29,133 nucleotides of DNA from an uncultured bacterium (GTDB lineage: Bacteria; Cyanobacteriota; Vampirovibrionia; Gastranaerophilales; Gastranaerophilaceae): the NCBI GenBank assembly GCA_900551915.1, contig URXT01000022.1, positions 1 through 29,133 of the forward strand. The letters run 5' to 3'. Made by a program: the position numbers and the translations under genes. Under the pieces are notes generated by a model. It saw only the letters and a program-made list of their open reading frames with translations, did no database searches and had not been told where the DNA came from. Of this stretch, positions 10,301 through 26,080 are shown piece by piece; positions within the stretch are counted from its first letter, which is position 1; each line of letters opens with the position of its first letter.

Positions 10301-10623
10301 TTGAATTTGCGAAAGAAGAACACGAAAAGCACGGGCTTTCTGTAAAAGAAGCTGCAATAAAAGCAGCAAAACTCAGATTCAGAGCGATTATGATGACGGA
10401 ACTTGCGTTTATCATAGGCGTATTGCCAATGATATTTGCCTCTGGTGCCGGCGCAAATTCAAGAATTTCTGTAGGTTCTACTGTATTTGGCGGTATGATT
10501 GCAGCGGCAACTTTGGGTGCTGTTTTGACACCAGCGTTCTACGTAATTGTTCAGGAATTCGTTGACCTTTTCCCGAAAAAAGAAATTACTGAAAAAGATT
10601 TGGAGATAACAGAAAAAGTATGA
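7360..10623 (+). CDS. RND multidrug efflux permease (AcrB/HAE1 family)
   Basis: This is an inner-membrane proton-driven pump of 1087 residues, slightly longer than AcrB. It shows the twofold RND layout: one N-terminal helix, a large periplasmic porter/docking region, a block of helices, then the same again. The proton-relay acids are in [14 protein letters not shown] (Asp416, Asp417), and the matching lysine is in [13 protein letters not shown] (Lys975). The region between the two halves (about 505-560) is longer than in AcrB and strongly charged. Both neighbours overlap it (one base upstream, ATGA four bases downstream), so all three subunits are made from one message. The HAE1 class pumps hydrophobic or amphiphilic compounds. 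Whether it serves the nearby biosynthetic cluster is unknown, since that cluster has its own MMPL exporter. Confidence 0.95.
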
Positions 10624-13151: not shown

Positions 13152-14084
13152 TTATTTGCCGGTATTTTCGCCGAATAAATCGTAAAAATGGTAAAATTGA
13201 TAAGGATATTTCAGTGTATTTTTTTCTAAAAATTCACCGAATTCCTTCTGAATTTTTGCAAGATTTTCTTTTTTGTCACCGGCGGGTATAAATTTTTCAT
13301 AATCAATCACGTATTTTGTTTGCTCTTTTGCGCAGACAATAAAATAAACCGGACATTCAAGCAATAATATAAACCGCATAATTCCGAGCGGGAGTTTGAT
13401 TGTTCTGTTTAAAAAGCTGATTTCGTAAAATTTATCCTCAGTCTGCGCGGAGAGTCTGTCGCCGGCCATGTAAACAAGTTCGCCGTTTTCAAGTTTTTCT
13501 TTTATTTTTATTGAGGTTTCGATGTCGATATCTTCAATTGCGAAAAGCTCAAGATTATGCTGTTGCGAGATTTTCTCAAGAAATCCGTTAAATATTTCGC
13601 ACTGATTTTTTTGCATAAATGCGTTGACTTTGACTTTTTCGGCGTAATCCTTTAAAAACATAAATTCCCGCATCATTTCAATGTTTCCGATGTGGGTTGA
13701 TATTAAAAATGCTCCCTGCTTTTCGTCCATAATTTTTTCAAAATCAGCTTTCAAATCCTCAGTTGCAAAGGTGAGTTTTTCAGGTGAATAATTCCCTGTA
13801 AATGCAAGCATTTTGTCAGCAAGAGAGTTCGCATAATTGAGAAAATGTTTGAAAGAATTCAGATTTGAAGGCTTCAAAGATTTTTTGCCGGTGAATTTGT
13901 AAAGCACTTCAAAATATTTTTTTGAATATTTTCGCAAATCTTTCGCATGAACAAAAGTTCCGGCTGTTATAAAAAATGCAATGAGCCTTAGCGGAAATTC
14001 TCCGAAATGCTTGTAAATCCACCAGGTTAAAAGAAGCCTTTTAGTTCCGGCAGCCTGTTCTTTTACCTGAAACCATTTTGTCAT
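13152..14084 (-). CDS. LpxL-like acyltransferase (COG4261 type) of the aryl polyene cluster
   Basis: The product is a 310-residue acyltransferase of the LpxL/HtrB lysophospholipid-type superfamily. The catalytic H-x4-E motif is in STHIGNIE (His131, Glu136), and a GDRLS motif follows (VYMAGDRLS). The N-terminus has the tryptophan/basic pattern (KWFQVKEQ...WWIYKHFGEFPLRLI) typical of the COG4261 proteins in aryl polyene clusters. There this activity is half of the ApeJ glycosyltransferase-acyltransferase and is thought to attach the polyene to a lipid. No glycosyltransferase domain is fused here. The ATG at 14084 overlaps the methyltransferase stop (ATGA); a GTG further upstream is less likely. 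The gene is the second of a two-gene transcript. Confidence 0.8.
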   Translation of the reverse strand: MTKWFQVKEQAAGTKRLLLTWWIYKHFGEFPLRLIAFFITAGTFVHAKDLRKYSKKYFEVLYKFTGKKSLKPSNLNSFKHFLNYANSLADKMLAFTGNYSPEKLTFATEDLKADFEKIMDEKQGAFLISTHIGNIEMMREFMFLKDYAEKVKVNAFMQKNQCEIFNGFLEKISQQHNLELFAIEDIDIETSIKIKEKLENGELVYMAGDRLSAQTEDKFYEISFLNRTIKLPLGIMRFILLLECPVYFIVCAKEQTKYVIDYEKFIPAGDKKENLAKIQKEFGEFLEKNTLKYPYQFYHFYDLFGENTGK

Positions 14085-15148
14085 TTTTTTACACACTCCA
14101 ATAATGTGTAATCATGCGCGCCTATGCCGGTGTAAGTGTTTTTGAGCTTCAATCCGGATTGTTCAATCATTTCTTCCATTTCAGTTTGCTTGTACATTTT
14201 GCTGTTGCCGTTTGCCATGCAGGTGAAGTACAACGACGTATGCACAAGCGAATATTTTGCGCCTTCAAACTGCTGATTGTCCGTGAAGGGTTCAAGAATA
14301 TAAACAAGCGTGTTTTCTTCGGAATTTTCGGAAATTCTTGTCAAAATCGAAATTATCTGCTGTTTTGCAAAACAGTCGAGAAACTGGCTCATAAAAACCG
14401 CGCCCGAAAGCTGCGGGAATTTCTGAGTTTCATCAAGAACATCAATTGCGTGAAACTTGCAGGTTTGTAATTCTTTGTCGCGGCTTACGATTTCAATATT
14501 CTCCTGCAAATCCAGCATTGTAATATCAATATTCGGATTATATTTCAGGCAAGTTTTTTCGAATTTTCCTGTGTTTGCGCCGATGTCAAAAATCCTTTTC
14601 GGGTTTTCGGCCGCAATAATTTTGTAAATTATGTCATAACAATTGTCTGAATAATAATGGTCAAATTCATACCAGCTTTTGCGTACTTTTTCGGGTAATT
14701 TTGGCACGAGTGGATAAATTGTACGTGTATTCCCGAAAAATTTATGCAAACCTTCCGGCTTTTCGTTCAAAAATGATTTTGTCATCTCGGAGGCGCCCAA
14801 ATAACAAACCTCACGTACAAAATTGAAATTAACTTTTGTCATTTCATCGTAAAGAAATGCTTTCCCAACCGTTGTTGCAGAAAAACTTCCGTCATGATTT
14901 TGTTCTGCTATATTTGCAGTTTCTGCGATTTCCAAAAGAGTACTGACAATATATTCACTTAAATTCAATTCACTCATCAAGTCTTGCGGCCGGCATGGTT
15001 TTTCATCAAGCTTTTTCAATATTCCTAAATCAAGCATTGTTCCGATTGCCTGAAAGGTCAATGGTGCAAAAGCTGTCTGCTGTGCCTGCGTCAGCGCTGA
15101 AATTGTTGAATGTTTCCGATTTTTTCTTCTATATTTTAATTCGTTCAT
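14081..15148 (-). CDS. SAM-dependent (O-)methyltransferase of the aryl polyene cluster
   Basis: The product has 355 residues. The N-terminal ~100 residues look like the helical winged-helix dimerisation domain of plant/bacterial-type small-molecule O-methyltransferases (LTFQAIGTMLDLGILKKLDEKP, then the L-N-L-S-E-Y helix). The Rossmann-type SAM-binding motif is FDIGANTGKFE (187-197), followed by the acidic strand-2 residue in ITMLDLQEN. A C-terminal segment (GAKYSLVHTSLYFTCMANGNSKM) resembles the substrate-side motif of polyketide methyltransferases. In aryl polyene clusters an enzyme of this kind methylates the aryl head group. No ribosome site is present and a -10 box sits 12 to 7 bases before the ATG, suggesting a leaderless start. 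Only 14 bases separate it from the divergent phosphopantetheinyl transferase gene. Confidence 0.85.
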   Translation of the reverse strand: MNELKYRRKNRKHSTISALTQAQQTAFAPLTFQAIGTMLDLGILKKLDEKPCRPQDLMSELNLSEYIVSTLLEIAETANIAEQNHDGSFSATTVGKAFLYDEMTKVNFNFVREVCYLGASEMTKSFLNEKPEGLHKFFGNTRTIYPLVPKLPEKVRKSWYEFDHYYSDNCYDIIYKIIAAENPKRIFDIGANTGKFEKTCLKYNPNIDITMLDLQENIEIVSRDKELQTCKFHAIDVLDETQKFPQLSGAVFMSQFLDCFAKQQIISILTRISENSEENTLVYILEPFTDNQQFEGAKYSLVHTSLYFTCMANGNSKMYKQTEMEEMIEQSGLKLKNTYTGIGAHDYTLLECVKK

Positions 15149-15165
15149 GATAAAATTTTAACATG
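15146..15165. promoter_or_regulatory. Symmetric bidirectional leaderless promoter
   Basis: The 14-bp gap plus both start codons reads CATGATAAAA then TTTTAACATG, an almost perfect palindrome. On the plus strand TGA-TAAAAT (15148-15156) is an extended -10 whose predicted start is the A of the transferase ATG (15163). On the minus strand TGT-TAAAAT (15163-15155) does the same for the methyltransferase ATG (15148). Each start codon region supplies the TG of the opposite element. A second minus-strand option is TATAAT at 15180-15175 with TTTGCA at 15202-15197. Confidence 0.6.
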
Positions 15166-15798
15166 AATATTTTCATTATAAGAACAGAAGAATTTTTGCA
15201 AAATGTTGACAAAAATTCTCTTACAAAAGAATTTAAATCTCAAAAACGCTGTGTTGAATATTCTTTAGGACGCTTTCTTGTAAAATATGCGGCGAAAAAT
15301 TTTTACAAAATTGATGATACGGAAATTGTTGTTGAAAATAAAAAACCGAAATTTAAAAACAGTTCTTTAAATTTCAGCATTTCGCATTCAAAAAATATTG
15401 TCGCAGCGGCGTTCGACGAAAACGATACCGGCTTTGATATTGAGGAAATCAAACCCAGAAATTTAAAAAGGCTTTCCGAATATTTCCATCGCGATTTTGT
15501 TGACGAAAACGATTTTTATCGTTACTGGACAAGCTACGAGGCTGAATACAAAAGCCAAAAGCAGGAGGTTGCCTCCTTCAAATTCGAAAATTACATGTGT
15601 TCGGTTTCTTTTTCTGGAATTAATACAAGACTCAAAATGTATGAACTGGTTATCCCTAAGAAAAGCACTGTTCCGAGCGAACTTATCAATTTGAAGCTTG
15701 TAAACGAAAGCATTAAAAACGAAAACGCGGTTGAAATAAAGGAAATAAATACCGCGTCTTTGGAATTTTTTTCGCCGCTTGCTCTAAAAATAGAATAA
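15163..15798 (+). CDS. 4'-phosphopantetheinyl transferase (Sfp type, short)
   Basis: This enzyme would load the phosphopantetheine arm from CoA onto the serine of the two cluster ACPs. The 211-residue protein carries the Sfp-type motifs: SISHSKNIVAAAF (72-84), GFDIEEIKPRN with metal-binding Asp92 and Glu94, and WTSYEAEYK with Glu126 and Lys130. The following FENYMCSVSF matches the last conserved strand. The ~50 residues after about 162 show no family pattern. From residue 143 on, the coding sequence lies opposite the last helices of the MMPL gene, a 208-bp convergent overlap. No ribosome site is visible before the ATG, and the -10 box position implies a leaderless message. Confidence 0.85.
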   Translation: MNIFIIRTEEFLQNVDKNSLTKEFKSQKRCVEYSLGRFLVKYAAKNFYKIDDTEIVVENKKPKFKNSSLNFSISHSKNIVAAAFDENDTGFDIEEIKPRNLKRLSEYFHRDFVDENDFYRYWTSYEAEYKSQKQEVASFKFENYMCSVSFSGINTRLKMYELVIPKKSTVPSELINLKLVNESIKNENAVEIKEINTASLEFFSPLALKIE

Positions 15799-17720
15799 TC
15801 AAGGCTGAAACCGGTTATCAAAAACATTGCGAGAATATTGAAAAAGTTCAGCGGCTGGCCGGCAAGGCTCAAAACCGAAATTGCAAAAAATGTGCCTAAA
15901 AACGGTGAAATTATTATGCGGCCGGCTTTTTTAAAACCGAAAATCGCGCCGAGCAGAACAAACAATATCAAAAACACGAAGGGAAGAAGTTTTAAAGACG
16001 CAATGCGTAAATTTTTAATCTGTTTTGTGATGTCTTTTGAAATATTTATGTAATTTACATTTTTATCTTCAGGGGTGAAGTTTTCGGCGTCAAACAAAAT
16101 CATATAAAGCGTATTTTTATCAAGCTGAAAATTTTTGATAATTTTGTCTGCGGATTTTTCAAAATCTGCCTTGTGCAACGTTTGAACAGAAAGTTTTAAT
16201 TCATTTCTTGTTTTTTTGTCAAGAAATTGCGCGTATTTATCGAGGTTGGAGTTGTATAAATTTTTTACCAGTTCCTGATTTTCTAATTCGATTTTCGCTG
16301 ATGGAAGAAGTTTTGAAAGCGAAAAATATTTGATATTTTTTTTGTCAAGTTCTTCTGCTGTTTTCTCCTCTTTTTCTATTGCCGAATTCAAATCAGTCCC
16401 TTCAATTGCGGCAAATGAAATGTCGGGCGTTTGAAAAGCGTTTTTGTTAAGAATTTCAGCCTTCAAAAGCGCTTTTGAAGGGTTGTAAAGGTTTCTGATG
16501 TCATCGTTAAAAGACATTCTAAGAAATCCGCCTCCAATAACAACCAAAACAACCGCAATAAATATTTTTTTGAATTTTGTCAATTCCGGAACAGGCAAAG
16601 CCGCCGGCTTTTCAGAAATAAATTTCTTGAAAAACGGGAAAAACAACAAAACAAACGCATAAACTCCGAAAAGTCCAAAGCCTGTAAATATGGCAATTTC
16701 TTTTAATATTTCAATTCCCGAAAACGGCAGAACCGCAAATGCTGCAACGGTTGTAAGCATTGAGGCAGTGAGATTTTTTATGAAGCCTTTGCTGCAAGAT
16801 GTCATTATATAATGCAGTGAATAATCAAGGCTTATTCCGATTAATGTTGTTGAAAATACGAATGTCAAAATATGCACAGAGCCTGCAATTGCCTGAACTG
16901 CAAGCCAGCCGAAAAACATTCCGAACGCAATGCTTGAAGCAATCGGAAATAAGATTTTGAACGATTTGAAATAAAATTTGCACAACAAAATCAGCGCTAT
17001 TGTCGAAATTATACAAATTAAATTAATTTCAAACGAGGATTTTTGGCTCGTGATATAAGAATGAACCGGTGTGCCTGTAATGTAGATTTGGCCGTTATTT
17101 TTTGCGTTGAATTCTTTTTGCAGTTTCAGCAGTTGTGCAATTTCAGCGGAAGAATTTTCTGTATTTTTAAGGCTTAATTGCTGTTTTGTGTAAAATTTCC
17201 CTTCAAATTCAGAAATCTCTGAGCCGCTGTAACCGGAGGTTTGCAAACTCATCACATAATCCGTCACAAAAAGATAAGGATCTTTGTCAGGAGTTTGTAT
17301 AAAAATTCCAAGCGGATTGTAGAGAGTTTCAAGACTTTGTTTGTCGATTTCTGTGTAATTTTTGCTGCGCAAAAGTTCTCGTTTCTGCGGCGTTAAAAAG
17401 TTTGCCGGATTGTTTTTGTAAACCTCCAAAATCTCTGAAAAATCATAGTTTTCTATTTCAATTGCACCGGATTTGAGTTCTGAAAGAAAGTTTTCTTTTA
17501 ATTTTTCTACGCTTTCATAATCTTCGCTTTCAAAAATCACATTTATTTTCGAAGACGAAAGGTCAGAAAGTTTCAGAAGCTGTTCGTTTTTTGTGCTGTC
17601 GGGTTTAATAAATCCCTGCAAAAGCCTTGTTTCAACTGGCCGAAACCTCATCACCGCCAGAGCCGCAAACACGATAAAAATTATCAAAAAAACTGTTCTG
17701 AAAATCGTTTCTTTTTTCAT
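15591..17720 (-). CDS. apeM: MMPL/RND-family exporter (ApeM-like)
   Basis: This is an inner-membrane lipid/polyketide exporter of 709 residues, of the COG4258 type encoded in aryl polyene clusters. It has two repeats, each with one helix, a soluble extracytoplasmic domain and a five-helix block. The family motif G-x-S-L-D-Y occurs in both halves, as GISLDYSLHY (295-304) and GFSLDYSIF (near 645). It probably moves the finished aryl polyene lipid, or a precursor, across the inner membrane for handover to the LolA-like protein. Its start lies 2 bases after the end of the LolA-like gene on the same strand. Its last 69 codons overlap the convergent phosphopantetheinyl transferase gene. Confidence 0.88.
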   Translation of the reverse strand: MKKETIFRTVFLIIFIVFAALAVMRFRPVETRLLQGFIKPDSTKNEQLLKLSDLSSSKINVIFESEDYESVEKLKENFLSELKSGAIEIENYDFSEILEVYKNNPANFLTPQKRELLRSKNYTEIDKQSLETLYNPLGIFIQTPDKDPYLFVTDYVMSLQTSGYSGSEISEFEGKFYTKQQLSLKNTENSSAEIAQLLKLQKEFNAKNNGQIYITGTPVHSYITSQKSSFEINLICIISTIALILLCKFYFKSFKILFPIASSIAFGMFFGWLAVQAIAGSVHILTFVFSTTLIGISLDYSLHYIMTSCSKGFIKNLTASMLTTVAAFAVLPFSGIEILKEIAIFTGFGLFGVYAFVLLFFPFFKKFISEKPAALPVPELTKFKKIFIAVVLVVIGGGFLRMSFNDDIRNLYNPSKALLKAEILNKNAFQTPDISFAAIEGTDLNSAIEKEEKTAEELDKKNIKYFSLSKLLPSAKIELENQELVKNLYNSNLDKYAQFLDKKTRNELKLSVQTLHKADFEKSADKIIKNFQLDKNTLYMILFDAENFTPEDKNVNYINISKDITKQIKNLRIASLKLLPFVFLILFVLLGAIFGFKKAGRIIISPFLGTFFAISVLSLAGQPLNFFNILAMFLITGFSLDYSIFRASGEKNSKDAVFISFISTAFSFLMLSFTSFKLISSLGTVLFLGITSSYILSLVLIPEKETEHM

Positions 17721-17722
17721 AA

Positions 17723-18241
17723 TTATTTGTAAAACCTGATTGTTGTTTCGGTTGAATTTTTCATTTTTATAATGATTTTTGAAATATCATTTTTGCCTTC
17801 AATTTCTACGGAAGCCAGATATTTTGAAGATTGGTGTGATTTTTTCGGAATAAAACCTAACGTCCAGTTTTCGCCGGTTTTTGTAAAATAAAAATCAAAA
17901 ATGTTTTCTATTTTCGAAAAAGATTTGTTTGAAATCGCGTTTATTACCTCATTAATCTGCTTGAATTCAGCCGCATTGTAGGAGGTTGTGCTTTCAATCG
18001 GGTATTTTGTTTTAAATACAATTCCCTGTTCTTTGACGAATTGAAAATCGCCCGAAGAGACTAAAGGAACCATGGTGCCCGGAAGAGTTTTCTCCTGTTT
18101 GAATTTGCAGTTGACGTTGTTCAACTCGGGAAGCTGCGGGTAAATCTCCGAAAGTTTTTGCGGATGTTCAAAAACACCGGCCGCTGCGGTCTGCATTGTT
18201 ATAAAAAATATTGAAAATATGATAAATATTTTTTTAATCAT
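17723..18241 (-). CDS. apeL: LolA-like periplasmic lipid carrier (ApeL-like)
   Basis: The product has 172 residues: a Sec signal peptide (about 1-21, ending TAAAG) and a single LolA/outer-membrane-lipoprotein-carrier-type domain. The pattern of alternating strands (F-K-Q-E-K-T-L-P-G, then SSGDFQFVKEQGIVFKTKYP) is the LolA opening, with its F-x-Q and G-x-F-x-F features. In ape clusters this protein sits next to the MMPL exporter and is thought to shuttle the aryl polyene lipid across the periplasm. Divergence from housekeeping LolA and the cluster position favour the specialised role. The start overlaps the end of the thioesterase gene by 8 bases. Confidence 0.8.
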   Translation of the reverse strand: MIKKIFIIFSIFFITMQTAAAGVFEHPQKLSEIYPQLPELNNVNCKFKQEKTLPGTMVPLVSSGDFQFVKEQGIVFKTKYPIESTTSYNAAEFKQINEVINAISNKSFSKIENIFDFYFTKTGENWTLGFIPKKSHQSSKYLASVEIEGKNDISKIIIKMKNSTETTIRFYK

Positions 18242-18653
18242 GATTTACGCTTTCTATTGCTTTCACAAGTCTTTCCGGCGCATTGTAAATGGTTTCTTTT
18301 GTTTTGGGATTTACACAAATCTGCATTGAGGAAGCTTTGAAAAGCTTCTCTTTTGTTAATGCATCATAAATCTCATATTTTATAATAATTGCAGGCTCGA
18401 TTTCCTCAAGAATACACTTTACTTCAAGTTCCTGATTAAAAGAAGCCGGTGCTATGAATTTTAAATCCATTTTTGCAATCGGATATGCAATTCCCGTATT
18501 ATGCATATCAATATAGCCGAAGCCTAAATGTTCAAAAAATTTTCCGCGTGCAAGCTCGAGATATTTGATATAATTCCCGTGCCAGACAACGTTCATCGGA
18601 TCAAGGTCGCAAAACGGGACTGTTATTTTTGTTGAATATTCGATTTTTTTCAT
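18234..18653 (-). CDS. apeK: 4HBT-type acyl thioesterase (ApeK-like)
   Basis: The product is a 139-residue hotdog-fold thioesterase of the 4-hydroxybenzoyl-CoA/YbgC class. The active-site motif is FCDLDPMNVVWHGNYIKYLE (14-33), with the Asp (16/18) and the H-G-N-Y segment typical of the family. It would hydrolyse acyl-ACP or acyl-CoA thioesters, either releasing the product or removing stalled chains. The ATG overlaps the stop of the ligase/dehydratase gene by four bases, with GGAG just ahead inside that gene. The gene order ligase-dehydratase, thioesterase, LolA, MMPL is that of aryl polyene clusters. Confidence 0.87.
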   Translation of the reverse strand: MKKIEYSTKITVPFCDLDPMNVVWHGNYIKYLELARGKFFEHLGFGYIDMHNTGIAYPIAKMDLKFIAPASFNQELEVKCILEEIEPAIIIKYEIYDALTKEKLFKASSMQICVNPKTKETIYNAPERLVKAIESVNHD

Positions 18654-20260
18654 ACAACTCCTTCCAATATATTTTTCACAGGAAGATTGCCCGAGGAATA
18701 AGTTTGTTTGTCATCGTGGTACTTGAAAGTAATTTTATTTTCCGAAAATTCCAGATTTAAATTGATTATTTTGTCCGGATAAATAATTCCGGCAAATTTC
18801 ATTCTGCGGATTTGGCCTGCTGTACAGTTTATTCCAAAAGCGTCTTTTGCAAAATATTGTGCATAAAAAAGCTGGACAACGCCCGGCAAAATAGGATAAC
18901 CCTCAAAATGCCCTTTGAAAAAATTGCAGTTTCTGTAAAAACATAGTTTAATGTCAGCAGAATTTTCGCAATATTTTTTCTCCAGCACAAGCGGAAATGA
19001 AAGGTTTAAATTAAACAAATTTTCTATTTTTTGTTTGTCTGTTTTTCCGTTTGAAGTTTTCGGAATTTCGTCTAAAAATTTCCACTTTTGAGGAAGAATT
19101 TCGAAAGATTTTCTCAAATAATTTTTCAAGATTTTTATCAATTCTACAGAGCCGGAATTTATTAGAAAATCAATGCCTGCGTTGTTTAAAACTGCGATAC
19201 AGGCGAGTTTTTCACCATTTTGTAATACATAAGATTTTTTGAGAAATTCATGTTTGTTAAGCGTATTTTCTACTTCTTCTGCAGAAAGCCTTTTTTCCTG
19301 AATTTTTAAAATCCTGTCAGCCCGTCCGAGAAGTTTTATTGTCCGGCCGTCGAGAACTTCAATCCTGTCGCCTATTATCTGAATTGGCTGAAAAGAATAT
19401 GGTGTTTCAATTTCAGTGCCGTTTAAAAGCGGTTTTATTCTGATATTTTTTAAAAGTTTGAGCGGTTCTTGAGCCGAGCAGCGGTAAGCGATTGTGCCGG
19501 TTTCTGTACTGCCGTAAATATCTATAACTTCTCCGGAAATTGATTTTGCATAATTTAGAGTTTCCTCTTTGAATTTAGCGCCGGCAGCGAATATTTTGAG
19601 CGGCTTTACGAGAGGTTTTTCGCTATATTTCTCCATTTTCTCCAAAAAAGACGGGCTTGTGATAAGGCAGGCATTTTCAATTGTCAGGTTTTCAGGATAG
19701 CTAATGCTGTTCGAGTTAATTACGCCTCCTGAATTAAGCGGCAGTATCAAGTAAAATACAAGTCCGTAAAGATGGTTTGGTGTGGTTGTTGCAATAAATT
19801 CCAAATTCTCGTTTATTGCAAATTCTTCTTTTAAATCCTCTGCTTCTTTTATGAGGTTTTTAAGTGTTTTTTGTATATTTTTTGGTGTGGCAGAACTTCC
19901 GGAGGTAAACAGGTTTATCATTATTTCGGAAGGGTTCCCCGCTTCAAAATCAAAGTCCGAACGGTTTTCGGAATTTTTTATACAAAGCTTTGTAATATCA
20001 GGAATTTCAAGGCTTTCCGTGAAGTTTTTCAGAACAATGTTTTTCTTTGCAAAAACGCAGGATAAAAAGTTGATTATAAAATCAAAATTGCTGCATTCGC
20101 CGATTGCAATTTCTGAAGAATTAAGAGTACGTAAATAAGCTGCTTTCGGCGCAATAATCTTTTTAATATCATATACCGAATAGCTTTCTCCATCTTTTTT
20201 CAAAATTATTTTGCTGTCGTATTCGGAGCCTTCAAAATATTTCAAAAAATCAGCAGTCAT
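18650..20260 (-). CDS. ApeH-ApeI fusion: AMP-dependent ligase plus hotdog dehydratase-like domain
   Basis: The product has 536 residues. Residues 1-420 are a short ANL-superfamily adenylating domain: P-loop FTSGSSATPK (118-127), YGSTETG (249-255), LGRADRILKIQEKRLSAEEVE (about 311-331), and catalytic-lysine motif PKTSNGKTDK (400-409, Lys406). It would activate the aryl starter acid for loading on an ACP. Residues 430-536 are a FabA/FabZ-like hotdog domain with GHFEGYPILPG (450-460, His451). The acidic residue expected in the following helix is replaced (PGVVQLFYAQ, Phe465), so dehydratase activity is doubtful. In the well-studied proteobacterial clusters these are two genes, apeH and apeI. The ATG overlaps the end of the COG4648 gene by 11 bases. 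Confidence 0.87.
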   Translation of the reverse strand: MTADFLKYFEGSEYDSKIILKKDGESYSVYDIKKIIAPKAAYLRTLNSSEIAIGECSNFDFIINFLSCVFAKKNIVLKNFTESLEIPDITKLCIKNSENRSDFDFEAGNPSEIMINLFTSGSSATPKNIQKTLKNLIKEAEDLKEEFAINENLEFIATTTPNHLYGLVFYLILPLNSGGVINSNSISYPENLTIENACLITSPSFLEKMEKYSEKPLVKPLKIFAAGAKFKEETLNYAKSISGEVIDIYGSTETGTIAYRCSAQEPLKLLKNIRIKPLLNGTEIETPYSFQPIQIIGDRIEVLDGRTIKLLGRADRILKIQEKRLSAEEVENTLNKHEFLKKSYVLQNGEKLACIAVLNNAGIDFLINSGSVELIKILKNYLRKSFEILPQKWKFLDEIPKTSNGKTDKQKIENLFNLNLSFPLVLEKKYCENSADIKLCFYRNCNFFKGHFEGYPILPGVVQLFYAQYFAKDAFGINCTAGQIRRMKFAGIIYPDKIINLNLEFSENKITFKYHDDKQTYSSGNLPVKNILEGVV

Positions 20261-20657
20261 ATTTCCTCTTAAATCTTATTCTTACAATATATTCTACCGC
20301 AAAAAACATTCCGATTAAAAGATACGAAATAAATCCGTTGTAAAGCGCCCAAACGGCTTCGCTCATAAAAACTGTCGCAACCGATACAAGCCAGTTTAAA
20401 AACGTAAACACCGCCCAAACATATGTAAGTTTTCTCGTATATTCCAGCGCTTTGGGTTTAATATCAGGTTCCATTGCTCTGGCTATTTTTTGTATAACAG
20501 TTTCTTTTTGAAACAATGAGGTAAAAAACATCAGAAAAATTAAAAAATTCACAACAACCGGATAATACTTCACCACAACCCAGTGTGTGAAGTGGAAAAG
20601 ACAGATTATAAGTATCGTGAAGATTACAGGCAAAAATGCCCCGAATTTTTTATTCAT
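20250..20657 (-). CDS. apeG: COG4648 membrane protein (ApeG-like)
   Basis: The product is a 135-residue integral membrane protein with four hydrophobic helices. It matches the COG4648 family by its basic helix start (Y-T-R-K-L-T-Y-V-W-A-V-F) and by the C-terminal WALYNGFISYLLIGMFFAVEYIVR-type segment ending in a cluster of Arg and Lys. The biochemical role is not established. The family is found almost only in aryl polyene and similar clusters between the ACPs and the ligase, as here. It overlaps the upstream ACP stop by 8 bases and the downstream ligase start by 11 bases, so translation is likely coupled along the whole group. Confidence 0.85.
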   Translation of the reverse strand: MNKKFGAFLPVIFTILIICLFHFTHWVVVKYYPVVVNFLIFLMFFTSLFQKETVIQKIARAMEPDIKPKALEYTRKLTYVWAVFTFLNWLVSVATVFMSEAVWALYNGFISYLLIGMFFAVEYIVRIRFKRKYDC

Positions 20658-20913
20658 CTTTGTTCAACAGCGCCAGAACGGCATTAACAACATCATCAAC
20701 AGTTTTGATTTGTTTGAATTCTTCGGGCGTAAGCTTTTTGTCGGTAAATCTCTGCATTCTCACTGCAATATCAACCGCATCAATGCTGTCAAGCTCAAAA
20801 TCCTCAAAAAGATTTGCTTCGCCTTTGATTAAATCTTCATCAATCTCAAGTTCATCGTGCAAAATATTTTTTAACTCTTCAAAAATCTGTTCTTTTGTGA
20901 ATTTATTCGCCAT
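20650..20913 (-). CDS. apeF: Acyl carrier protein (ApeF-like)
   Basis: The product is an 87-residue acidic acyl carrier protein. The phosphopantetheine attachment site is the Ser of FELDSIDAVD (Ser about 43), in a four-helix ACP pattern (ILHDELEIDEDLI, then the DSID helix, then TVDDVVNAVLALL). It would carry the growing polyene chain. The ATG at 20913 is preferred over a TTG one codon upstream. It overlaps the first ACP gene by 11 bases. Its sequence differs clearly from that of the neighbouring ACP, so the two are not a recent duplication and probably have separate jobs (starter loading against extension). Confidence 0.9.
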   Translation of the reverse strand: MANKFTKEQIFEELKNILHDELEIDEDLIKGEANLFEDFELDSIDAVDIAVRMQRFTDKKLTPEEFKQIKTVDDVVNAVLALLNKDE

Positions 20914-21163
20914 CAATTTTTGACCTCACAAATTCTGCCAGAGTGTTAACAGAATAAAAATATTTTTTATTTTCTTCTTTGTCATGACCCAGAGTGATGT
21001 TATATTTCTTCTTTAGAGCCATTCCAAGCTCCAATGCGTCAATTGAGTCAAGCCCCAGCCCCGTTATAAAAAGCGGTTCGTCCTCTTTTATATCTTCCGG
21101 GGTTATTTCATCAAGTTCCAACGAGTCTATAATTAGTTTTTTTATTTCATCTTTTAATTCCAT
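20903..21163 (-). CDS. apeE: Acyl carrier protein (ApeE-like)
   Basis: The product is an 86-residue acyl carrier protein with phosphopantetheine Ser in GLGLDSIDALELG (Ser about 40). It is longer in its last loop than the second ACP (GHDKEENKKYFYSV before the final helix). It would be activated by the phosphopantetheinyl transferase encoded at the other end of the cluster. The start at 21163 removes six residues that would require a GTG codon. TATATT lies exactly 12 to 7 bases before this ATG with no ribosome site, so a leaderless internal promoter is possible. The preceding acyltransferase gene ends only 20 bases upstream. Confidence 0.88.
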   Translation of the reverse strand: MELKDEIKKLIIDSLELDEITPEDIKEDEPLFITGLGLDSIDALELGMALKKKYNITLGHDKEENKKYFYSVNTLAEFVRSKIDGE

Positions 21164-21169
21164 AATTAT

Positions 21170-21178
21170 AATATAGCA
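21170..21178 (-). promoter_or_regulatory. Possible internal leaderless promoter ahead of the ACP genes
   Basis: On the minus strand TGC-TATATT is an extended -10 whose hexamer (21175-21170) ends 7 bases before the ATG at 21163, so transcription would begin on the start codon. No good -35 is seen. It could boost ACP expression inside the operon. Confidence 0.4.
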
Positions 21179-21183
21179 CAAAT

Positions 21184-21927
21184 TTAATTATACAAGGAAT
21201 TTTCTATCAATTTTGTAATATTTTTTTTAATAATAATTTCGCTGTCATGTTTTTGAATTTCGGCTAAAACGTTGATTTCGGGACATTTTTCAAGTGAAAA
21301 AACAACAGGTTTTTCACCGGCTTGCCAGACCGGCTGATGGATAAACAGAAAATCAAAATCTGTATAAAGTTTGAGAGGAACGATATTTCTTTTTGCGTTT
21401 AATGCTATCAGAGCCGCACCTTTTTTAATTTTTGGAAATTCATTTTTTCTGTGGCGTATGCCTGACGGGAAAATTATTACATTGAAACCTTCGTCAAGCA
21501 ATTCTTTTGTTTGTTTTTGAAACTCTTCAAGATTGGCCTCGTTTGTAATGAAAATCGTGTTCAGGATATTTTTCATTATTGGATTTCTTGCAAGCGCTTC
21601 TTTTGCAATGCAGGTGGTTCTTGGTATCAGCCCGATAAGAATTACAACATCAATAAAGCTCGGATGGGTTGAAACGATTATTTTATTTTTAATTTGTTCT
21701 ATTTCTTTGCGGTCTTTAATGTTAAGCTTCATAACGCCTGTAAAGATAAGAAAATTCGTGAAAAATCTCCATACTTTATGAATTGTTTCCGAGTAAAAGT
21801 CATTAAGCTTTTCTTTTTTTATGAAGATTTTTGCAGAAGGAAAAAGCAGGAAGTTTATTATGCATGCGCCGGCTCCAAAAATTCCAAAACAAAATAGTAC
21901 AAGAACGGAGCGGAAAAACTTTATCAT
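21184..21927 (-). CDS. apeD: PlsC-type acyltransferase (ApeD-like)
   Basis: The product is a 247-residue 1-acylglycerol-3-phosphate acyltransferase-type protein with an N-terminal membrane helix (about 7-30). Motif I is STHPSFIDVV with H88-x4-D93; motif III is FPSGIR (153-158), where the usual Glu of FPEGTR is Ser. It would transfer an acyl chain within the lipid anchor of the product. This position, directly after apeC and before the ACPs, is the apeD position of aryl polyene clusters. The ATG overlaps the apeC stop (ATGA), with a GGATGGAG ribosome site ahead. Confidence 0.85.
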   Translation of the reverse strand: MIKFFRSVLVLFCFGIFGAGACIINFLLFPSAKIFIKKEKLNDFYSETIHKVWRFFTNFLIFTGVMKLNIKDRKEIEQIKNKIIVSTHPSFIDVVILIGLIPRTTCIAKEALARNPIMKNILNTIFITNEANLEEFQKQTKELLDEGFNVIIFPSGIRHRKNEFPKIKKGAALIALNAKRNIVPLKLYTDFDFLFIHQPVWQAGEKPVVFSLEKCPEINVLAEIQKHDSEIIIKKNITKLIENSLYN

Positions 21928-22532
21928 TTCTCCATCCTTTCAATTGTTCCGCAGGGTGTGTGAAAAACTTTTGTGCAGCCGTTTAAAAATTCGCTGAAGG
22001 CTGAAAATTCGTCAGCTTCAGAAGGCTTTGAGCAAGGTGTGAAAACACATTTTACAGAATTTTCGCTGCCGGTTTTGGAAATCAGACAGGAAATACTCTC
22101 TGGCATATCAAAAGCATCGCCGTAACAAAACAAAACTTTGTCATATTCAGAAATAATTGCCTTGACAAGTCCGGCCGAAAGTGAGTTTTTGCCTGCCGAG
22201 AGCGCCGTGTAGGACGAATTTATGTTATTCAAAAGCGAAAATAATCCTGCAAAGTTATTGTGAACAGAGGTGGAAAATTTCGCCGGAGAAACCTCGTTTG
22301 CCTCTAAATATTGGCTGATAAGCGTTTTTAATGTATCAAACTCGCCGTATTCCGAGGAGAAAATAATCTCCTGTGAAGTTTCATCAAAAACTTTTTTCAA
22401 AGACGACAAACAGATTTTGTCAAGCCTGCTCAGCTTTCTGCGCATTAGCATCGGGATGTCCGTAAGGTCGGTTTCGTTTGAGTTTTCTATTGCAAATTTT
22501 TCAATATAAAAAATTTTACTGGAAGTTTTCAT
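21924..22532 (-). CDS. apeC: Ketosynthase-like chain-length factor (ApeC-like, PF13723)
   Basis: The product has 202 residues and matches the short beta-ketoacyl-synthase N-terminal-like family (Ketoacyl-synt_2) found in aryl polyene clusters. Visible marks are PMLMRRKLSRLDKICLSSL (27-45), IIFSSEYGEF (56-65) and SPAKFSTSVHNNFAGLFSL (82-100). The segment TALSAGKNSL (109-118) aligns with the catalytic-cysteine region TACSSGIKAF of the ApeO-like ketosynthase. This puts Leu111 in place of the Cys, so the protein cannot condense and would act as the partner of ApeO. The start at 22532 was chosen because a longer form would run into the divergent apeO gene; TATAAT lies exactly 12 to 7 bases upstream, suggesting a leaderless message. 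Confidence 0.82.
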   Translation of the reverse strand: MKTSSKIFYIEKFAIENSNETDLTDIPMLMRRKLSRLDKICLSSLKKVFDETSQEIIFSSEYGEFDTLKTLISQYLEANEVSPAKFSTSVHNNFAGLFSLLNNINSSYTALSAGKNSLSAGLVKAIISEYDKVLFCYGDAFDMPESISCLISKTGSENSVKCVFTPCSKPSEADEFSAFSEFLNGCTKVFHTPCGTIERMEK

Positions 22533-22559
22533 AAACTTATTATACAATAAAGCAAGGCG
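22533..22559. promoter_or_regulatory. Divergent promoter region between apeC-like and apeO-like genes
   Basis: A 27-bp gap carries back-to-back -10 boxes. On the minus strand TATAAT (22544-22539) is placed so that transcription starts on the apeC ATG. On the plus strand TACAAT (22543-22548) would give a leader of about 5 bases before the apeO ATG, with only a weak AAGG ribosome site. The boxes overlap, so the two transcripts probably compete or share one regulator. Confidence 0.5.
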
Positions 22560-23696
22560 ATGAGTATTAAAATTACAAAATATGAGGCTGCCTGTAATTT
22601 GGGCGGTTGTATAGAGGAAATTTACCAAAATGCTCTTTTGGGCGATTTTGAGTGTTTTGAAGAGAATTCAGCGTGCTTAACAGGCAAGCCGGCGCGGCTT
22701 GGTGTAATTTCAGGTGATTTGCCGCGTATTAGCGAACAGGATTATGATTTAAGATGCAACCGGTTGCTCTTAAAGGTTTGCGGGCTTCTTGAGAATGAGA
22801 TTAATGAGCTTATCAAAAAGTACGGTGCTGAAAATATCGCTGTCGTTGCTGCAACGACCAATACCGGCGTTGAAGAATTTGAAACCTCAAACAATCCTGA
22901 ACATGCACAAATCGGAAATCCTGCCGGATTTTTAAAAAAACATTTTAATTTGAAAAATTTCCATGCCTCGGTGTCTACGGCCTGTTCTTCAGGAATTAAA
23001 GCCTTTTCTGCGGCTTGTGAAATTTTGGAGAACAATGTCGCACAAGCCGTTATTGTTGCAGGCGTTGATTCAATAGCAAAAGTTGCGGTTTACGGTTTTG
23101 ATTCGCTTGAAGTTCTTTCGCCAAAGCCTTCAATTCCTTTCAGCAAAAACCGCGAAGGAATAAATATCGGTGAAGCCGCTGCAATTTTTCTTCTTGAAAA
23201 AGATGTGTCAAAAGGGATTGAAATCTCCGGAATTGGCGAAACCACAGACGTTTACCACTCCACAACGCCTGACCCGAAAGCTGTTGAGGCTGTCCGCGCA
23301 ATAAAAACCGCATTAAACAAAAGCAAAATTGACCCGCAGGAGGTGGATTACATAAACCTTCATGGTACAGGTTCGATTTCAAATGATTTGATGGAAGCCA
23401 ATGCGGTTTATCAGGTTTTTGAAGATAAAGTTTATGCAAGTTCAACCAAACCGCTTACCGGCCACTGTCTCGGTGCGGCAGCAAGTCTTGAAACAGCTTT
23501 ATGCTGCAAACTTCTGGAAGAAAATAATACAAAAGTTTACCCGCATATTTTTGACGGGGTTTACGACGAAAATCTTCCCAAAATCAGGCTCGCGCAAAAG
23601 AATTGCGAAGTAAAACAAATTAAAACATGCCTTTCGCTTTCTTTCGGCTTTGGCGGGACAAATGCCGCAATTATCTTGAGGAGGTGCGATGAGTAA
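22560..23696 (+). CDS. apeO: Beta-ketoacyl-ACP synthase (ApeO-like)
   Basis: The product is a 378-residue thiolase-fold condensing enzyme with the full KAS I/II triad: Cys142 in STACSSGIKA, His268 in NLHGTGS, and His302 in LTGHCLGAAAS. The C-terminal SFGFGGTNAA glycine loop is also present. In aryl polyene systems ApeO forms a heterodimer with the Cys-less ApeC, and here the two genes are divergent neighbours 27 bp apart. It would elongate the polyene chain on ACP. It is the first gene of the plus-strand set KS-dehydratase-ketoreductase-KS, whose order is that of apeO-P-Q-R. Its 3' end overlaps the dehydratase gene by 8 bases. Confidence 0.92.
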   Translation: MSIKITKYEAACNLGGCIEEIYQNALLGDFECFEENSACLTGKPARLGVISGDLPRISEQDYDLRCNRLLLKVCGLLENEINELIKKYGAENIAVVAATTNTGVEEFETSNNPEHAQIGNPAGFLKKHFNLKNFHASVSTACSSGIKAFSAACEILENNVAQAVIVAGVDSIAKVAVYGFDSLEVLSPKPSIPFSKNREGINIGEAAAIFLLEKDVSKGIEISGIGETTDVYHSTTPDPKAVEAVRAIKTALNKSKIDPQEVDYINLHGTGSISNDLMEANAVYQVFEDKVYASSTKPLTGHCLGAAASLETALCCKLLEENNTKVYPHIFDGVYDENLPKIRLAQKNCEVKQIKTCLSLSFGFGGTNAAIILRRCDE

Positions 23697-24135
23697 TTAC
23701 GATTTGACAAAAGTTCTTCCGCATAATCCTCCGATGATTTTGATTGATGATGTTTTAGAATATAATTTAAATGCTAAAACTCTTACCGCTGTTGTTACAA
23801 TTAATGAGGAAATGTTGTTTTTTGACAAAACAATAAACGGTGTATCATCATTAATTGGCATTGAATTTATGGCACAGGCAGTCGGCTGCTATTCATATTT
23901 TAAAAGCTGCTGCAAACCGCCTGAAATAGGTTTTCTGCTTGGTTCGCGGCTGTTTAACAATGCGCTTGGGGTTTTTGAAAACGGTAAAACTTTTACAATA
24001 AAAGTTCATGAATCATTTACAGACAACCAAATTTCCGCATTTGATTGTATAATATATGATGAGTCGGCAGAAGAAATTGCAAGCGCTACTGTAAAAGTTT
24101 ATCAAAGCGAAGAAGCAAAGGAGCTTTTGAAATGA
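23689..24135 (+). CDS. apeP: Hotdog 3-hydroxyacyl-ACP dehydratase (ApeP-like)
   Basis: The product is a 148-residue hotdog protein of the family that pairs with FabG/FabF in aryl polyene clusters. It opens with LPHNPPMILIDDVLEY (10-25, His12), and the helix GVSSLIGIEFMAQAVGCYSYF (51-71) holds the expected Glu59 and Gln63. It would dehydrate the 3-hydroxyacyl-ACP intermediate to the trans double bond in each polyene cycle. Because the hotdog domain of the ligase fusion lacks its acidic residue, this is the better candidate for the active dehydratase. AGGAGG lies 4 bases before the ATG inside the upstream KS gene. Confidence 0.88.
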   Translation: MSNYDLTKVLPHNPPMILIDDVLEYNLNAKTLTAVVTINEEMLFFDKTINGVSSLIGIEFMAQAVGCYSYFKSCCKPPEIGFLLGSRLFNNALGVFENGKTFTIKVHESFTDNQISAFDCIIYDESAEEIASATVKVYQSEEAKELLK

Positions 24136-24857
24136 CGGAGAAAACAGTTTTAATAACAGGTTCAAGCAGAGGGATAGGTAAAGCCGCGGCATTATATCTG
24201 GCTGACGGCGGATATGATATTGTTCTTCACTGCTCCAAAAATCCCGGAAGATTAAGCGCGTTAGAAGACGAAATCCGCTCAAAAGGCCGAAAATGCAGAA
24301 CGCTCGCGTTTGACGTGAAAGACCGCGCGCAAACTTCTGAAATTTTGTTGAAGGATATTGAAGAAAACGGAATTTACTACGGAATTGTTCTGAATGCAGG
24401 AATTGCAAAAGATGCACCGTTTCCTGCAATGGAGGAGGAAGAGTGGGACAGCGTTTTGCGAACAAATCTCGACGGATTTTATAATGTTTTGAAACCGCTC
24501 ATAATGCCTTTAATCCAATCACGCCGCGGAAGAATAATTGCAATGACTTCAATCTCCGGCTTAACGGGAAACCGCGGGCAGGTGAATTACAGCGCCTCAA
24601 AAGCCGGAATTATCGGCGCGGTAAAAGCTTTGTCGCGTGAGGTTGCCAAGAGAAAGATTACCGTAAACTGCATAGCACCGGGAGTTATTGAATCTGATAT
24701 GACCGTTAATATTCCTGAGGATTTCATAAAAGAAATTCCGCTCAAGCGTATGGGAACTCCAAAAGAAGTCGCAAGTCTTGTGAATTATCTTATGAGCGAA
24801 GATGCCGGATATATTACAGGGCAGGTAATTTCCATGAACGGAGGGCTTTACTTATGA
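24132..24857 (+). CDS. apeQ: 3-oxoacyl-ACP reductase, FabG/SDR type (ApeQ-like)
   Basis: The product is a 241-residue classical short-chain dehydrogenase. The NAD(P)-binding TGSSRGIG is at residues 9-16, LNAG at 87-90, and the catalytic set is Asn112, Ser140, Tyr153 and Lys157 (YSASK). The Ser-Arg after the glycine motif favours NADPH. It would reduce the 3-oxo group after each condensation. Both gene ends overlap by four bases with neighbours (ATGA), so the four plus-strand genes are tightly coupled. Confidence 0.93.
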   Translation: MTEKTVLITGSSRGIGKAAALYLADGGYDIVLHCSKNPGRLSALEDEIRSKGRKCRTLAFDVKDRAQTSEILLKDIEENGIYYGIVLNAGIAKDAPFPAMEEEEWDSVLRTNLDGFYNVLKPLIMPLIQSRRGRIIAMTSISGLTGNRGQVNYSASKAGIIGAVKALSREVAKRKITVNCIAPGVIESDMTVNIPEDFIKEIPLKRMGTPKEVASLVNYLMSEDAGYITGQVISMNGGLYL

Positions 24858-26080
24858 CAAGACGTGTTGTAATTACGGGTATGGCGCTTGCTTCACCATT
24901 AGGGTCGGAGGTTGAAACTGCTTTTAACAGATTAAAAAAGTTTGAAAATTGTGTCAAATACTGGGAAGTTTTAGATAAATACGACAAACTGAATACGCGG
25001 CTTGCGGCTTTTGTGGAAGGCTTCAAAACTCCGGAACATTTTACACGAAAAGTTACAAGAACAATGGGGCCGGTGTCGGTTATGGCCGCCGCAACAGCCG
25101 AAGAAGCCCTTAAGCAGGCCGGACTTCTCGACGATAAAATAATTCAAAGCGGTATGACAGGAGTAAGTTACGGCTCTTCCTGCGGGTCTTTGGATGCGGT
25201 TTTGGATTTCTATTCAATGTATGTCGATAATGAGGTTAAAGCGCTTAACTCCGGCTCTTACATAAAAATGATGCCGCAAACTGCTGCTGTAAATATTTCG
25301 CTTTATTTCAAAACGCATGGAAGGCTTATTCCTACATCTACGGCCTGTACATCGGGGTCAATGGGAATCGGATACGCTTATGAAATGATTAAACACGGCT
25401 TCCAAACCGTTATGATTGCAGGCGGCGCTGAAGAAATTCATCCGACAGAAATCGGAGTTTTTGACACGCTTTTTGCAACAAGTACGAAAAATAATACTCC
25501 AAAACTTACACCCAGACCGTTTGATAAAGAACGTGACGGGCTTGTCATCGGCGAAGGCGCCGGAACTTTGATTTTGGAAGATTACGAATTTGCTAAAGCA
25601 AGAGGCGCAAAAATTCTGGCTGAAGTTGCAGGATTTGCCACAAACACTGACGGCTCTCATATTACAAATCCGAATAAAGATATGATGAAAGAAGTTATGC
25701 TCATGGCGCTTGAAAATGCCCGAATTTCTCCAAAAGAAATCGGCTGTGTAAATGCACACGGAACTGCAACAATTCAAGGCGATATTGCTGAAACCAACGC
25801 GGTTTTTGAAGCTTTTAAAACATCCATTCCGATTAGTACGATTAAAAGTTACACCGGCCACACACTAGGTGCCTGCGGTGCTATTGAAGCAATTCTTGCA
25901 ATAAAAATGATGAATGAAAAGTGGTTCTCGCCAAATCTTAATCTTGTAACTCCTGACCTTGAATGCGGGGATTTGGATTATATTACAGGCTCCGGCCGCG
26001 AAATTGACACCCAATATGTGATGTCAAACAACTTTGCTTTCGGCGGAATCAATACCTCTTTGATTTTGAAAAGAATATAG
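24854..26080 (+). CDS. apeR: Beta-ketoacyl-ACP synthase II type (ApeR-like)
   Basis: The product is a 408-residue FabF-type condensing enzyme with complete triad Cys165 (STACTSGS), His302 (NAHGTAT) and His336 (YTGHTLGACG), and the C-terminal NNFAFGGINTS loop. It is the last gene of the plus-strand set. In known aryl polyene clusters a second KS of this kind works beside the ApeO-ApeC pair, for the starter or early condensations. Having a second complete KS fits an iterative type II system. No terminator hairpin follows; the next gene starts after a separate promoter at 26104. Confidence 0.93.
   Translation: MTRRVVITGMALASPLGSEVETAFNRLKKFENCVKYWEVLDKYDKLNTRLAAFVEGFKTPEHFTRKVTRTMGPVSVMAAATAEEALKQAGLLDDKIIQSGMTGVSYGSSCGSLDAVLDFYSMYVDNEVKALNSGSYIKMMPQTAAVNISLYFKTHGRLIPTSTACTSGSMGIGYAYEMIKHGFQTVMIAGGAEEIHPTEIGVFDTLFATSTKNNTPKLTPRPFDKERDGLVIGEGAGTLILEDYEFAKARGAKILAEVAGFATNTDGSHITNPNKDMMKEVMLMALENARISPKEIGCVNAHGTATIQGDIAETNAVFEAFKTSIPISTIKSYTGHTLGACGAIEAILAIKMMNEKWFSPNLNLVTPDLECGDLDYITGSGREIDTQYVMSNNFAFGGINTSLILKRI

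What the first reader, a model, noticed from the sequence alone, without database searches (positions are those of the whole stretch)
13152..26080. Aryl-polyene-type biosynthetic cluster in a probable non-photosynthetic cyanobacterial relative
Fifteen adjacent genes reproduce the ape gene set and much of its order: C-D-E-F-G-H/I-K-L-M on one strand and O-P-Q-R on the other, plus a phosphopantetheinyl transferase, methyltransferase and LpxL-like acyltransferase. Aryl polyenes are outer-membrane pigments that protect against oxidative stress and are best known from Proteobacteria and Bacteroidetes. If the host is a Gastranaerophilales-type bacterium, this would be an unexpected lineage and a possible gut-adaptation trait. 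Gene families are read from motifs; the taxon and the product are inferred.
Basis: partly seen in the sequence, partly recalled or inferred. Interest (0 to 1): 0.85.

Follow-up and report, generated by a model that had tools for sequence, protein, structure and literature searches.

The report
Yellow-pigment gene cluster in gut melainabacterium
This stretch holds a nearly complete gene set for aryl polyenes, yellow protective pigments of the bacterial outer membrane, most likely in a gut-dwelling non-photosynthetic relative of cyanobacteria, a group in which the open-access papers searched here do not report them.

Summary
Window 13152-26080 carries 16 adjacent ORFs (not fifteen), each pairing with its expected counterpart in E. 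coli and/or Pseudoalteromonas ape clusters. Order: J-acyltransferase, B, (PPTase, opposite strand), M, L, K, H-I, G, F, E, D, C on minus, diverging from O, P, Q, R. ApeR passes the curated PRK09116 cut-off (620 vs 470 bits). In a KS tree ApeR and ApeO group with proteobacterial ApeR and ApeO, away from FabF-like rows. ApeA, ApeN and ApeJ's glycosyltransferase half were not found. ApeH and ApeI are fused, as in 118 of 120 listed proteins. No genome is held for the window; the three ApeH-I relatives listed with an organism name are all Candidatus Gastranaerophilales/-aceae. Eight paper searches of an open-access library surfaced no report of aryl polyenes there. Product, starter acid and lipid anchor are inferred. 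Known pathway, architectural variant, unexpected lineage.

The parts
13152..14096 (-). LpxL-like acyltransferase = acyltransferase half of ApeJ, free-standing
   Evidence: E. coli ApeJ residues 243-549 (E 6e-33) and the separate Pseudoalteromonas acyltransferase (E 3e-38), (38-protein database); E 1e-32; HIGNIE (H-x4-E) motif
14081..15148 (-). ApeB / FlxJ-type SAM methyltransferase
   Evidence: 38% to E. coli ApeB over 349 aa; FlxJ family 346 bits, below its cut-off 560
15163..15798 (+). Sfp/AcpT-type phosphopantetheinyl transferase, on the opposite strand inside the minus-strand gene row
   Evidence: AusB model 46.9 bits, below its cut-off 225; E. coli AcpT 29%, E 2e-9; Sfp structure 1qr0 E 2e-5; DIE and WTSYEA motifs
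15591..17720 (-). ApeM, MMPL/RND-type lipid exporter
   Evidence: profile comparison 99.7%; HpnN model 42 bits, far below its cut-off
17723..18241 (-). ApeL, LolA-like protein
   Evidence: profile comparison 95.9%, ApeN control 1.6%; no Pfam match even at E 5
18234..18653 (-). ApeK, 4HBT thioesterase
   Evidence: 41% to Pseudoalteromonas ApeK; 4HBT_2
18650..20260 (-). ApeH-ApeI fusion: aryl-acid AMP ligase plus hotdog dehydratase
   Evidence: AMP-binding + ApeI-like PF22818; both domains in one chain in 118 of the 120 listed proteins, the window's own included
20250..20657 (-). ApeG, short membrane protein
   Evidence: 40% to the C-terminal half of Pseudoalteromonas ApeG
20650..20913 (-). ApeF acyl carrier protein
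   Evidence: 51% to E. coli ApeF; DSI serine
20903..21163 (-). ApeE acyl carrier protein
   Evidence: 58% to E. coli ApeE; DSI serine
21184..21927 (-). ApeD, PlsC-type acyltransferase
   Evidence: 32% to Pseudoalteromonas ApeD; HPSFID motif
21924..22532 (-). ApeC, chain-length-factor partner of ApeO
   Evidence: Ketoacyl-synt_2 E 2e-27; best solved relatives 7f28_A and 6qsp_B
22560..23696 (+). ApeO ketosynthase
   Evidence: PRK09185 321 bits, below cut-off 407; best solved relative 6qsp_A; tree; C-H-H motifs
23689..24135 (+). ApeP dehydratase
   Evidence: PF22817 53.8 bits, above cut-off 27
24132..24857 (+). ApeQ ketoreductase (FabG-like SDR)
   Evidence: 60% to Pseudoalteromonas ApeQ; FabG models
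24854..26080 (+). ApeR ketosynthase
   Evidence: PRK09116 620 bits vs cut-off 470; 54-58% to the two reference ApeR; tree

Best explanation
A Gastranaerophilales (Melainabacteria) aryl polyene lipid cluster. Proposed course: the PPTase arms the carrier proteins ApeE and ApeF; the ApeH part of ApeH-I adenylates an aromatic acid and loads it on a carrier; ApeO-ApeC and ApeR extend it with malonyl units; ApeQ reduces and ApeI/ApeP dehydrate each round, and with no dedicated enoyl reductase in the cluster the double bonds remain; ApeB methylates the ring; ApeK frees or hands over the acid; ApeD and the free-standing ApeJ acyltransferase attach it to a lipid; ApeG, ApeL and ApeM carry it to the outer membrane, where it would quench reactive oxygen. 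Shown here: gene identities, order, motifs, kinship. Inferred: every reaction, the product, the starter (4-hydroxybenzoate or similar), the anchor, and the benefit.
For: 16 of 16 ORFs pair with ape-type genes (for the weak ones). KS tree: a metagenomic ApeR clade of 17 rows with the window's (99) joined to seven proteobacterial-type ApeR (100); ApeO with five ApeO (100). Catalytic motifs present in the KSs, A-domain, hotdog domains, SDR, carriers and acyltransferases. Six longest-contig lengths are shared by the ApeR and ApeH-I lists; the five above 20 kb (27975, 31616, 48637, 73472, 77739) also share a source, which suggests both genes on one contig in five relatives; the sixth, 2938, has different sources and is a chance match. 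Three of three organism names listed are Gastranaerophilales/-aceae. Melainabacteria are reported to have lipid A/LPS genes and a Gram-negative envelope (PMC3787301 and PMC4040986, one passage each). In E. coli most core and transport genes are needed for pigment, and the pigment protects from oxidative stress (PMC8253772: abstract, introduction and passages).
Against: The names rest on relatives of 41-52% identity; transfer between gut lineages is not excluded. The FlxJ, ApeO and PPTase models score below their curated cut-offs. ApeA, ApeN, the ApeJ glycosyltransferase half and an aromatic ammonia-lyase were not found in the window, and in E. coli the primary APE lipid was seen only in the parent and the apeR mutant, so lacking ApeA or a complete ApeJ should alter or block the final lipid there. 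No expression or chemistry.
Confidence: 0.75

Rival explanations
1. Real ape-type cluster, but the host is another gut diderm (for example Spirochaetota, Verrucomicrobiota or Elusimicrobiota) and Gastranaerophilales merely share it by transfer.
For: Aryl polyene clusters are reported in gut Treponema_D, Victivallis and Prevotella and in Verrucomicrobiota and Spirochaetota; no own genome is held.
Against: All three organism names listed among the ApeH-I relatives are Gastranaerophilales/-aceae. A sample of 296 Bacteroidota genomes gave no listed ApeR match above 39% identity (the list was cut). The nearest named ApeR is proteobacterial at 58%. Spirochaetota, Verrucomicrobiota and Elusimicrobiota were not searched: I had no genome handle in them.
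Confidence: 0.12
2. The cluster makes a different conjugated lipid, not an aryl polyene: ApeH-I would activate a non-aromatic acid, as in other polyene lipids, or the cluster makes a flexirubin-like product.
For: No starter-supplying enzyme was found in the window (ammonia-lyase query; no chorismate lyase family among the 30 ORFs scanned). The methyltransferase scores to FlxJ, though below cut-off.
Against: ApeH, ApeE, ApeF and ApeB pair with the E. coli genes, and the E. coli cluster also has no starter gene of its own, 4-hydroxybenzoate coming from UbiC (PMC8253772). No dialkylresorcinol-type family appeared among the ORFs scanned.
Confidence: 0.15
3. Misassembly or contamination from a known ape-bearing genome.
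For: None found.
Against: Best named ApeR 58% identical; E. coli DNA similarity 66% over 23% of a 3.6-kb query; the ApeR protein recurs as 59 members in 16 contigs; gene GC is broadly continuous with the flanks.
Confidence: 0.02
4. Housekeeping fatty acid synthesis genes misread as ape genes.
For: ApeQ also scores over FabG model cut-offs.
Against: ApeR 620 bits to PRK09116 against 358 to FabF; tree; loci with FabF-like KSs carry at most 3 of 16 genes.
Confidence: 0.01

Closest known systems
E. coli aryl polyene cluster (apeA-R plus acpT; here L037, soil isolate SC455)
   Same: 15 of 16 window genes found there by tblastn; C-to-M (without J) and O-to-R colinear with it
   Different: E. coli has one strand, separate ApeH and ApeI, ApeJ with glycosyltransferase plus acyltransferase, ApeA and ApeN, acpT after apeR. 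Window: two divergent rows, H-I fused, acyltransferase alone at the far end, ApeA and ApeN not found, PPTase on the opposite strand between B and M
Pseudoalteromonas sp. Bsw20308 ape cluster (L038)
   Same: Higher identity than E. coli for ApeR, ApeQ, ApeP, ApeK, ApeD; its ApeJ acyltransferase is also a separate gene
   Different: Has the glycosyltransferase gene, an aromatic amino acid ammonia-lyase, an FAD oxidoreductase and ApeN; no methyltransferase annotated in the cluster
Bacteroidota aryl polyene / flexirubin clusters
   Same: FlxJ-type methyltransferase score; five Bacteroidota loci have carrier protein, LpxL-like acyltransferase, KS and reductase matches side by side (L041, L042, L044, L045, L050); that these are such clusters is inferred
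   Different: Listed KS matches are 33-39% to the window's ApeR; the two of these loci kept in the tree (L041, L045) fall outside the ApeR clade, next to it with support 87
Solved structures 6qsp, 7f28, 7f27 (that these are aryl polyene ApeO-ApeC and ApeR of Xenorhabdus and Acinetobacter is recalled; the tool's molecule names do not say so)
   Same: Best solved matches of the window's ApeO, ApeC and ApeR
   Different: ApeC match weak (44 bits for 7f28_A, 33 for 6qsp_B)

Membership tests
Aryl polyene (ape) cluster | ApeO KS with ApeC chain-length partner plus ApeR KS | tested here: met
   ApeO model below its NCBIfam cut-off (321 vs 407)
Aryl polyene (ape) cluster | Aryl-acid ligase ApeH, two carrier proteins, ketoreductase, ApeI and ApeP dehydratases, no enoyl reductase | tested here: met
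   ApeH and ApeI fused. The only reductase, ApeQ, also matches Pfam PF13561, whose description reads enoyl reductase, but its best curated model is FabG and its pair is ApeQ
Aryl polyene (ape) cluster | Envelope attachment and transport set ApeD, G, J, K, L, M, N | tested here: inconclusive
   D, G, K, L, M and the acyltransferase half of J found; N and the glycosyltransferase half of J not found. That tblastn test is weak for divergent small proteins: with the E. coli query it also misses ApeL
Aryl polyene (ape) cluster | Product: aryl-capped polyene carboxylic acid absorbing at about 440 nm | not testable with these tools
   needs cells or purified enzymes
Flexirubin cluster | Dialkylresorcinol genes and tyrosine ammonia-lyase beside the ape genes (recalled) | tested here: inconclusive
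   no such family among the ORFs scanned and no ammonia-lyase hit, but only 13 kb on one side and 3 kb on the other could be seen
Candidatus Gastranaerophilales origin | Marker genes or genome placement | not testable with these tools
   no genome held; indirect support from named relatives, 3 of 3 names among 120 listed

The most novel reading that the evidence does not exclude
Aryl polyenes are a common, long-inherited trait of gut Gastranaerophilales, pigmented non-photosynthetic cyanobacterial kin, which make a distinct, possibly sugar-free lipid: with the ApeJ glycosyltransferase half and ApeN missing, the free-standing acyltransferase and ApeD would attach the polyene to a plain glycerolipid rather than to the aminosugar anchor known from Xenorhabdus (that anchor is recalled; one search did not find the paper).
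Probability: 0.3. Interest if true: 0.65.

Novelty: new variant of a known kind. Interest (0 to 1): 0.5.

Why it matters
[quoted passage not shown] A cluster in the Cyanobacteriota/Melainabacteria group widens their range to a host-associated lineage that is hard to culture (PMC8863827, passage), gives a testable surface pigment for it, and offers a natural experiment on which anchoring and transport genes (ApeJ glycosyltransferase, ApeN, ApeA) can be dispensed with.

Tried and rejected
Own-genome search: none held. Scans of viral contigs gave nothing and then 16 loci, one with a proteobacterial-type ApeR (L051, 55%), the rest at 27-34%. The GH57 flank gene matched 2 of 22 genomes, so it gave no taxon. 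The lineage-restricted ORF 4319-5578 gave 10 unnamed relatives. Structure models of ApeL and the PPTase from single sequences were poor (mean pLDDT 38.8 and 29.7) and were not used; no fold search was made. A palindromic bidirectional promoter between ApeC and ApeO was dropped (6 of 10 pairs, reached in 70% of 2000 shuffles); between ApeB and the PPTase it is marginal (9 of 10, 1.35% of shuffles, and the facing start codons contribute). The tRNA scan and the Rfam scan at gathering thresholds found nothing. In the tree 57 rows were used of 83 prepared (82 plus one ApeO); 26 near-duplicate, partial or viral rows were dropped by hand before the build. It was the quick method, with long branches, above all the window's ApeO (2.09). 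One KS just after apeR in a Caballeronia plasmid (L069 at 17248) fell outside the ApeR clade together with two Bacteroidota rows (joined to the ApeR clade with 87).

PMC13055281 assigns its aryl polyene clusters to MAG18, MAG25 and MAG29, not to its Vampirovibrionaceae MAG14; PMC10311452 uses polyene for carotenoids only. Contig lengths were recounted. My motif pattern for ApeK was one residue too long and found nothing; the translation reads DLDPMNVVWHGNY there. Confidence was lowered from a drafted 0.85 to 0.75, because the rivals' odds left no room for 0.85.
Full report
What is there. The window has 16 adjacent ORFs from 13152 to 26080. Family scans name an LpxL-like acyltransferase, a FlxJ-like methyltransferase, a PPTase of the AusB/AcpT kind, an HpnN/MMPL-like transporter, a 4HBT thioesterase, an AMP ligase joined to an ApeI-like dehydratase, two carrier proteins, a PlsC-type acyltransferase, a Ketoacyl-synt_2 protein, and on the other strand two ketosynthases, an ApeP-like dehydratase and a FabG-like reductase; ApeL and ApeG have no meaningful family match. 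ApeR reaches 620 bits against the PRK09116 model (cut-off 470). ApeO (321 vs 407), the methyltransferase (346 vs 560), the PPTase (47 vs 225) and the transporter (42 vs 752) fall short of their curated cut-offs.

Gene by gene. Two annotated clusters served as references, E. coli SC455 (L037) and Pseudoalteromonas sp. Bsw20308 (L038). Each of the 16 ORFs pairs with its expected ape gene or acpT (only 38 reference proteins, so E-values flatter). ApeR and ApeQ are 54-60% identical, the carriers 46-58%, the rest 18-41%. The LpxL-like protein aligns with residues 243-549 of E. coli ApeJ and with the separate acyltransferase gene of Pseudoalteromonas: it is ApeJ without its glycosyltransferase. The methyltransferase is ApeB. 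ApeL is supported by a profile comparison at 95.9% with an ApeN-profile control of 1.6%, ApeM at 99.7%. Searching the window with ApeA, two ApeN, two glycosyltransferase halves and the ammonia-lyase gave nothing better than E 0.3; the FAD oxidoreductase gave one weak stretch (E 0.001) outside the cluster. This test is weak for divergent small proteins (the E. coli ApeL query also fails there), but inside the cluster every ORF already has another assignment.

More than chance. By tblastn at E 1e-4, 36 loci carrying an ApeR-like KS (L001-L036) hold at most 3 of the 16 genes, 12 Bacteroidota loci (L039-L050) at most 5, the five proteobacterial ape regions 12 to 15; lengths differ, the 12 being about 4 kb and the five 33-37 kb. 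In a tree of 57 ketosynthases (quick method) the window's ApeR lies in a clade of 17 metagenomic ApeR rows including itself (support 99), joined to seven proteobacterial-type ApeR rows (100), one of these from a viral contig; ApeO lies with five ApeO proteins (100), on a long branch. FabF-like rows lie outside; two Bacteroidota rows and a Caballeronia KS are the next neighbours of the ApeR clade (87). No certified E. coli FabF or FabB was included. Best solved relatives of ApeO, ApeC and ApeR are 6qsp, 7f28 and 7f27. Catalytic motifs are present where looked for; my pattern for ApeK was mis-set, and the expected stretch is visible.

Who owns it. No genome is held for the window and the one genome-contig scan returned 32 loci, none titled cyanobacterial. 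The ApeR search lists its best 120: the window's own, one at 88%, nine at 78-79%, the others 73-76%, none named. The ApeH-I search lists 120 of 503; four bear a source name, three of these name an organism, and all three are Candidatus Gastranaerophilales or Gastranaerophilaceae, at 52, 41 and 41% identity. NCBI places this order in Candidatus Melainabacteria. The two lists share six longest-contig lengths; the five above 20 kb (27975, 31616, 48637, 73472, 77739) also share a source, which suggests that ApeR and ApeH-I lie on one contig in five relatives; the sixth (2938) does not and is a chance match. The contigs themselves could not be read. 296 Bacteroidota genomes gave no listed ApeR match above 39%. 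That these relatives live in guts is inferred from the order's name and literature, not from the search. My reading of the N-terminal style of flanking ORFs as Gastranaerophilales-like is recalled and untested.

What is unusual. ApeH and ApeI are one chain; 118 of the 120 listed proteins (the window's included) carry both domains and one adds a thioesterase (P0222) (the list favours query-like proteins). The rows C-to-J and O-to-R diverge with 27 bases between the ApeC (22532) and ApeO (22560) starts. The PPTase lies on the plus strand, its start 14 bases from ApeB's, its 3' end overlapping ApeM by 208 bases. ApeO, ApeQ and ApeR have higher GC (0.42-0.44) than the other cluster genes (0.33-0.39).

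How it works. By the published scheme (PMC8253772; abstract, introduction and passages): aryl acid loading by ApeH, extension by ApeO-ApeC, reduction by ApeQ, dehydration by ApeI/ApeP, methylation by ApeB, release by ApeK, attachment by ApeD/ApeJ, export by ApeM with ApeG and the Lol-like ApeL and ApeN; ApeR looked least needed there. In E. coli the apeA, apeD and apeJ mutants keep pigment in part or whole, so a cluster without ApeA and half of ApeJ could still make the polyene; but the primary APE lipid appeared only in the parent and the apeR mutant, and clean apeN mutants were not obtained, so the final lipid here may differ or need genes elsewhere. Starter supply is open: the window shows no candidate, but E. 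coli also takes it from outside the cluster. Melainabacteria are reported to have LPS and lipid A genes (PMC3787301, PMC4040986; one passage each), so an outer-membrane pigment fits.

What is in print. Eight searches of the held open-access library bear on this: 10, 18, 34, 80 and 81 pair polyene words with the group's names, 17 pairs Gastranaerophilales with biosynthetic gene cluster, 35 and 36 pair arylpolyene or aryl polyene with cyanobacteria. Listings of 18, 34, 35 and 36 were capped (20 of 65, 40 of 102, 25 of 32, 25 of 69); 80 and 81, searched anywhere in words, were not, and hold 1 and 3 papers. Of these, PMC8863827 reports the clusters in Treponema_D, Victivallis and Prevotella in a study that also has a Gastranaerophilaceae genome, PMC9769736 in Bacteroidetes, Lentisphaerae and Verrucomicrobia, PMC10311452 is about carotenoids; PMC13055281 has a Vampirovibrionaceae genome, but its aryl polyene clusters are in other genomes. 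All were seen by passages only. None reports aryl polyenes in Gastranaerophilales/Melainabacteria. Most subscription papers, bioRxiv and supplementary tables were not searched; automated cluster catalogues may list it unremarked.

Verdict. A real ape cluster, an architectural variant of a known kind, in an unexpected and probably correctly guessed lineage; chemistry unproven.

Noticed in passing
window 15149-15162 and 15591-15798: PPTase gene on the opposite strand inside the minus-strand row: 14 bases from the ApeB start, 208-base tail-to-tail overlap with ApeM.
   Followed up: partly
window 22533-22559: Only 27 bases separate the divergent ApeC and ApeO start codons, with a TATAAT-like box near the ApeC start and a promoter-like match (TTTACT-17-TATTAT) towards ApeO.
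   Followed up: partly
P0222 (relative, 661 aa): A relative joins ApeH, ApeI and a 4HBT thioesterase (ApeK-like) in one chain.
   Followed up: no
window 4319-5578: 419-aa protein with only 10 relatives at E 1e-3 in a database of 5.8 billion sequences; no Pfam match.
   Followed up: partly
window 6185-12125: AcrA-AcrB-TolC type efflux operon near the cluster, followed by an EamA transporter at 12166-13050.
   Followed up: no
window 767-3058: 763-aa GH57 protein; distant matches in 2 of 22 genomes tried.
   Followed up: partly
window 26174-26980: HD-domain-like protein after ApeR, weak Pfam match below cut-off.
   Followed up: no
L051 16-1236: An IMG/VR 'viral' contig carries a proteobacterial-type ApeR (55%) at its end, probably host DNA.
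   Followed up: no
L041, L042, L044, L045, L050: Bacteroidota loci with KS, carrier protein, LpxL-like acyltransferase and reductase matches together: perhaps a differently built relative of the cluster.
   Followed up: no
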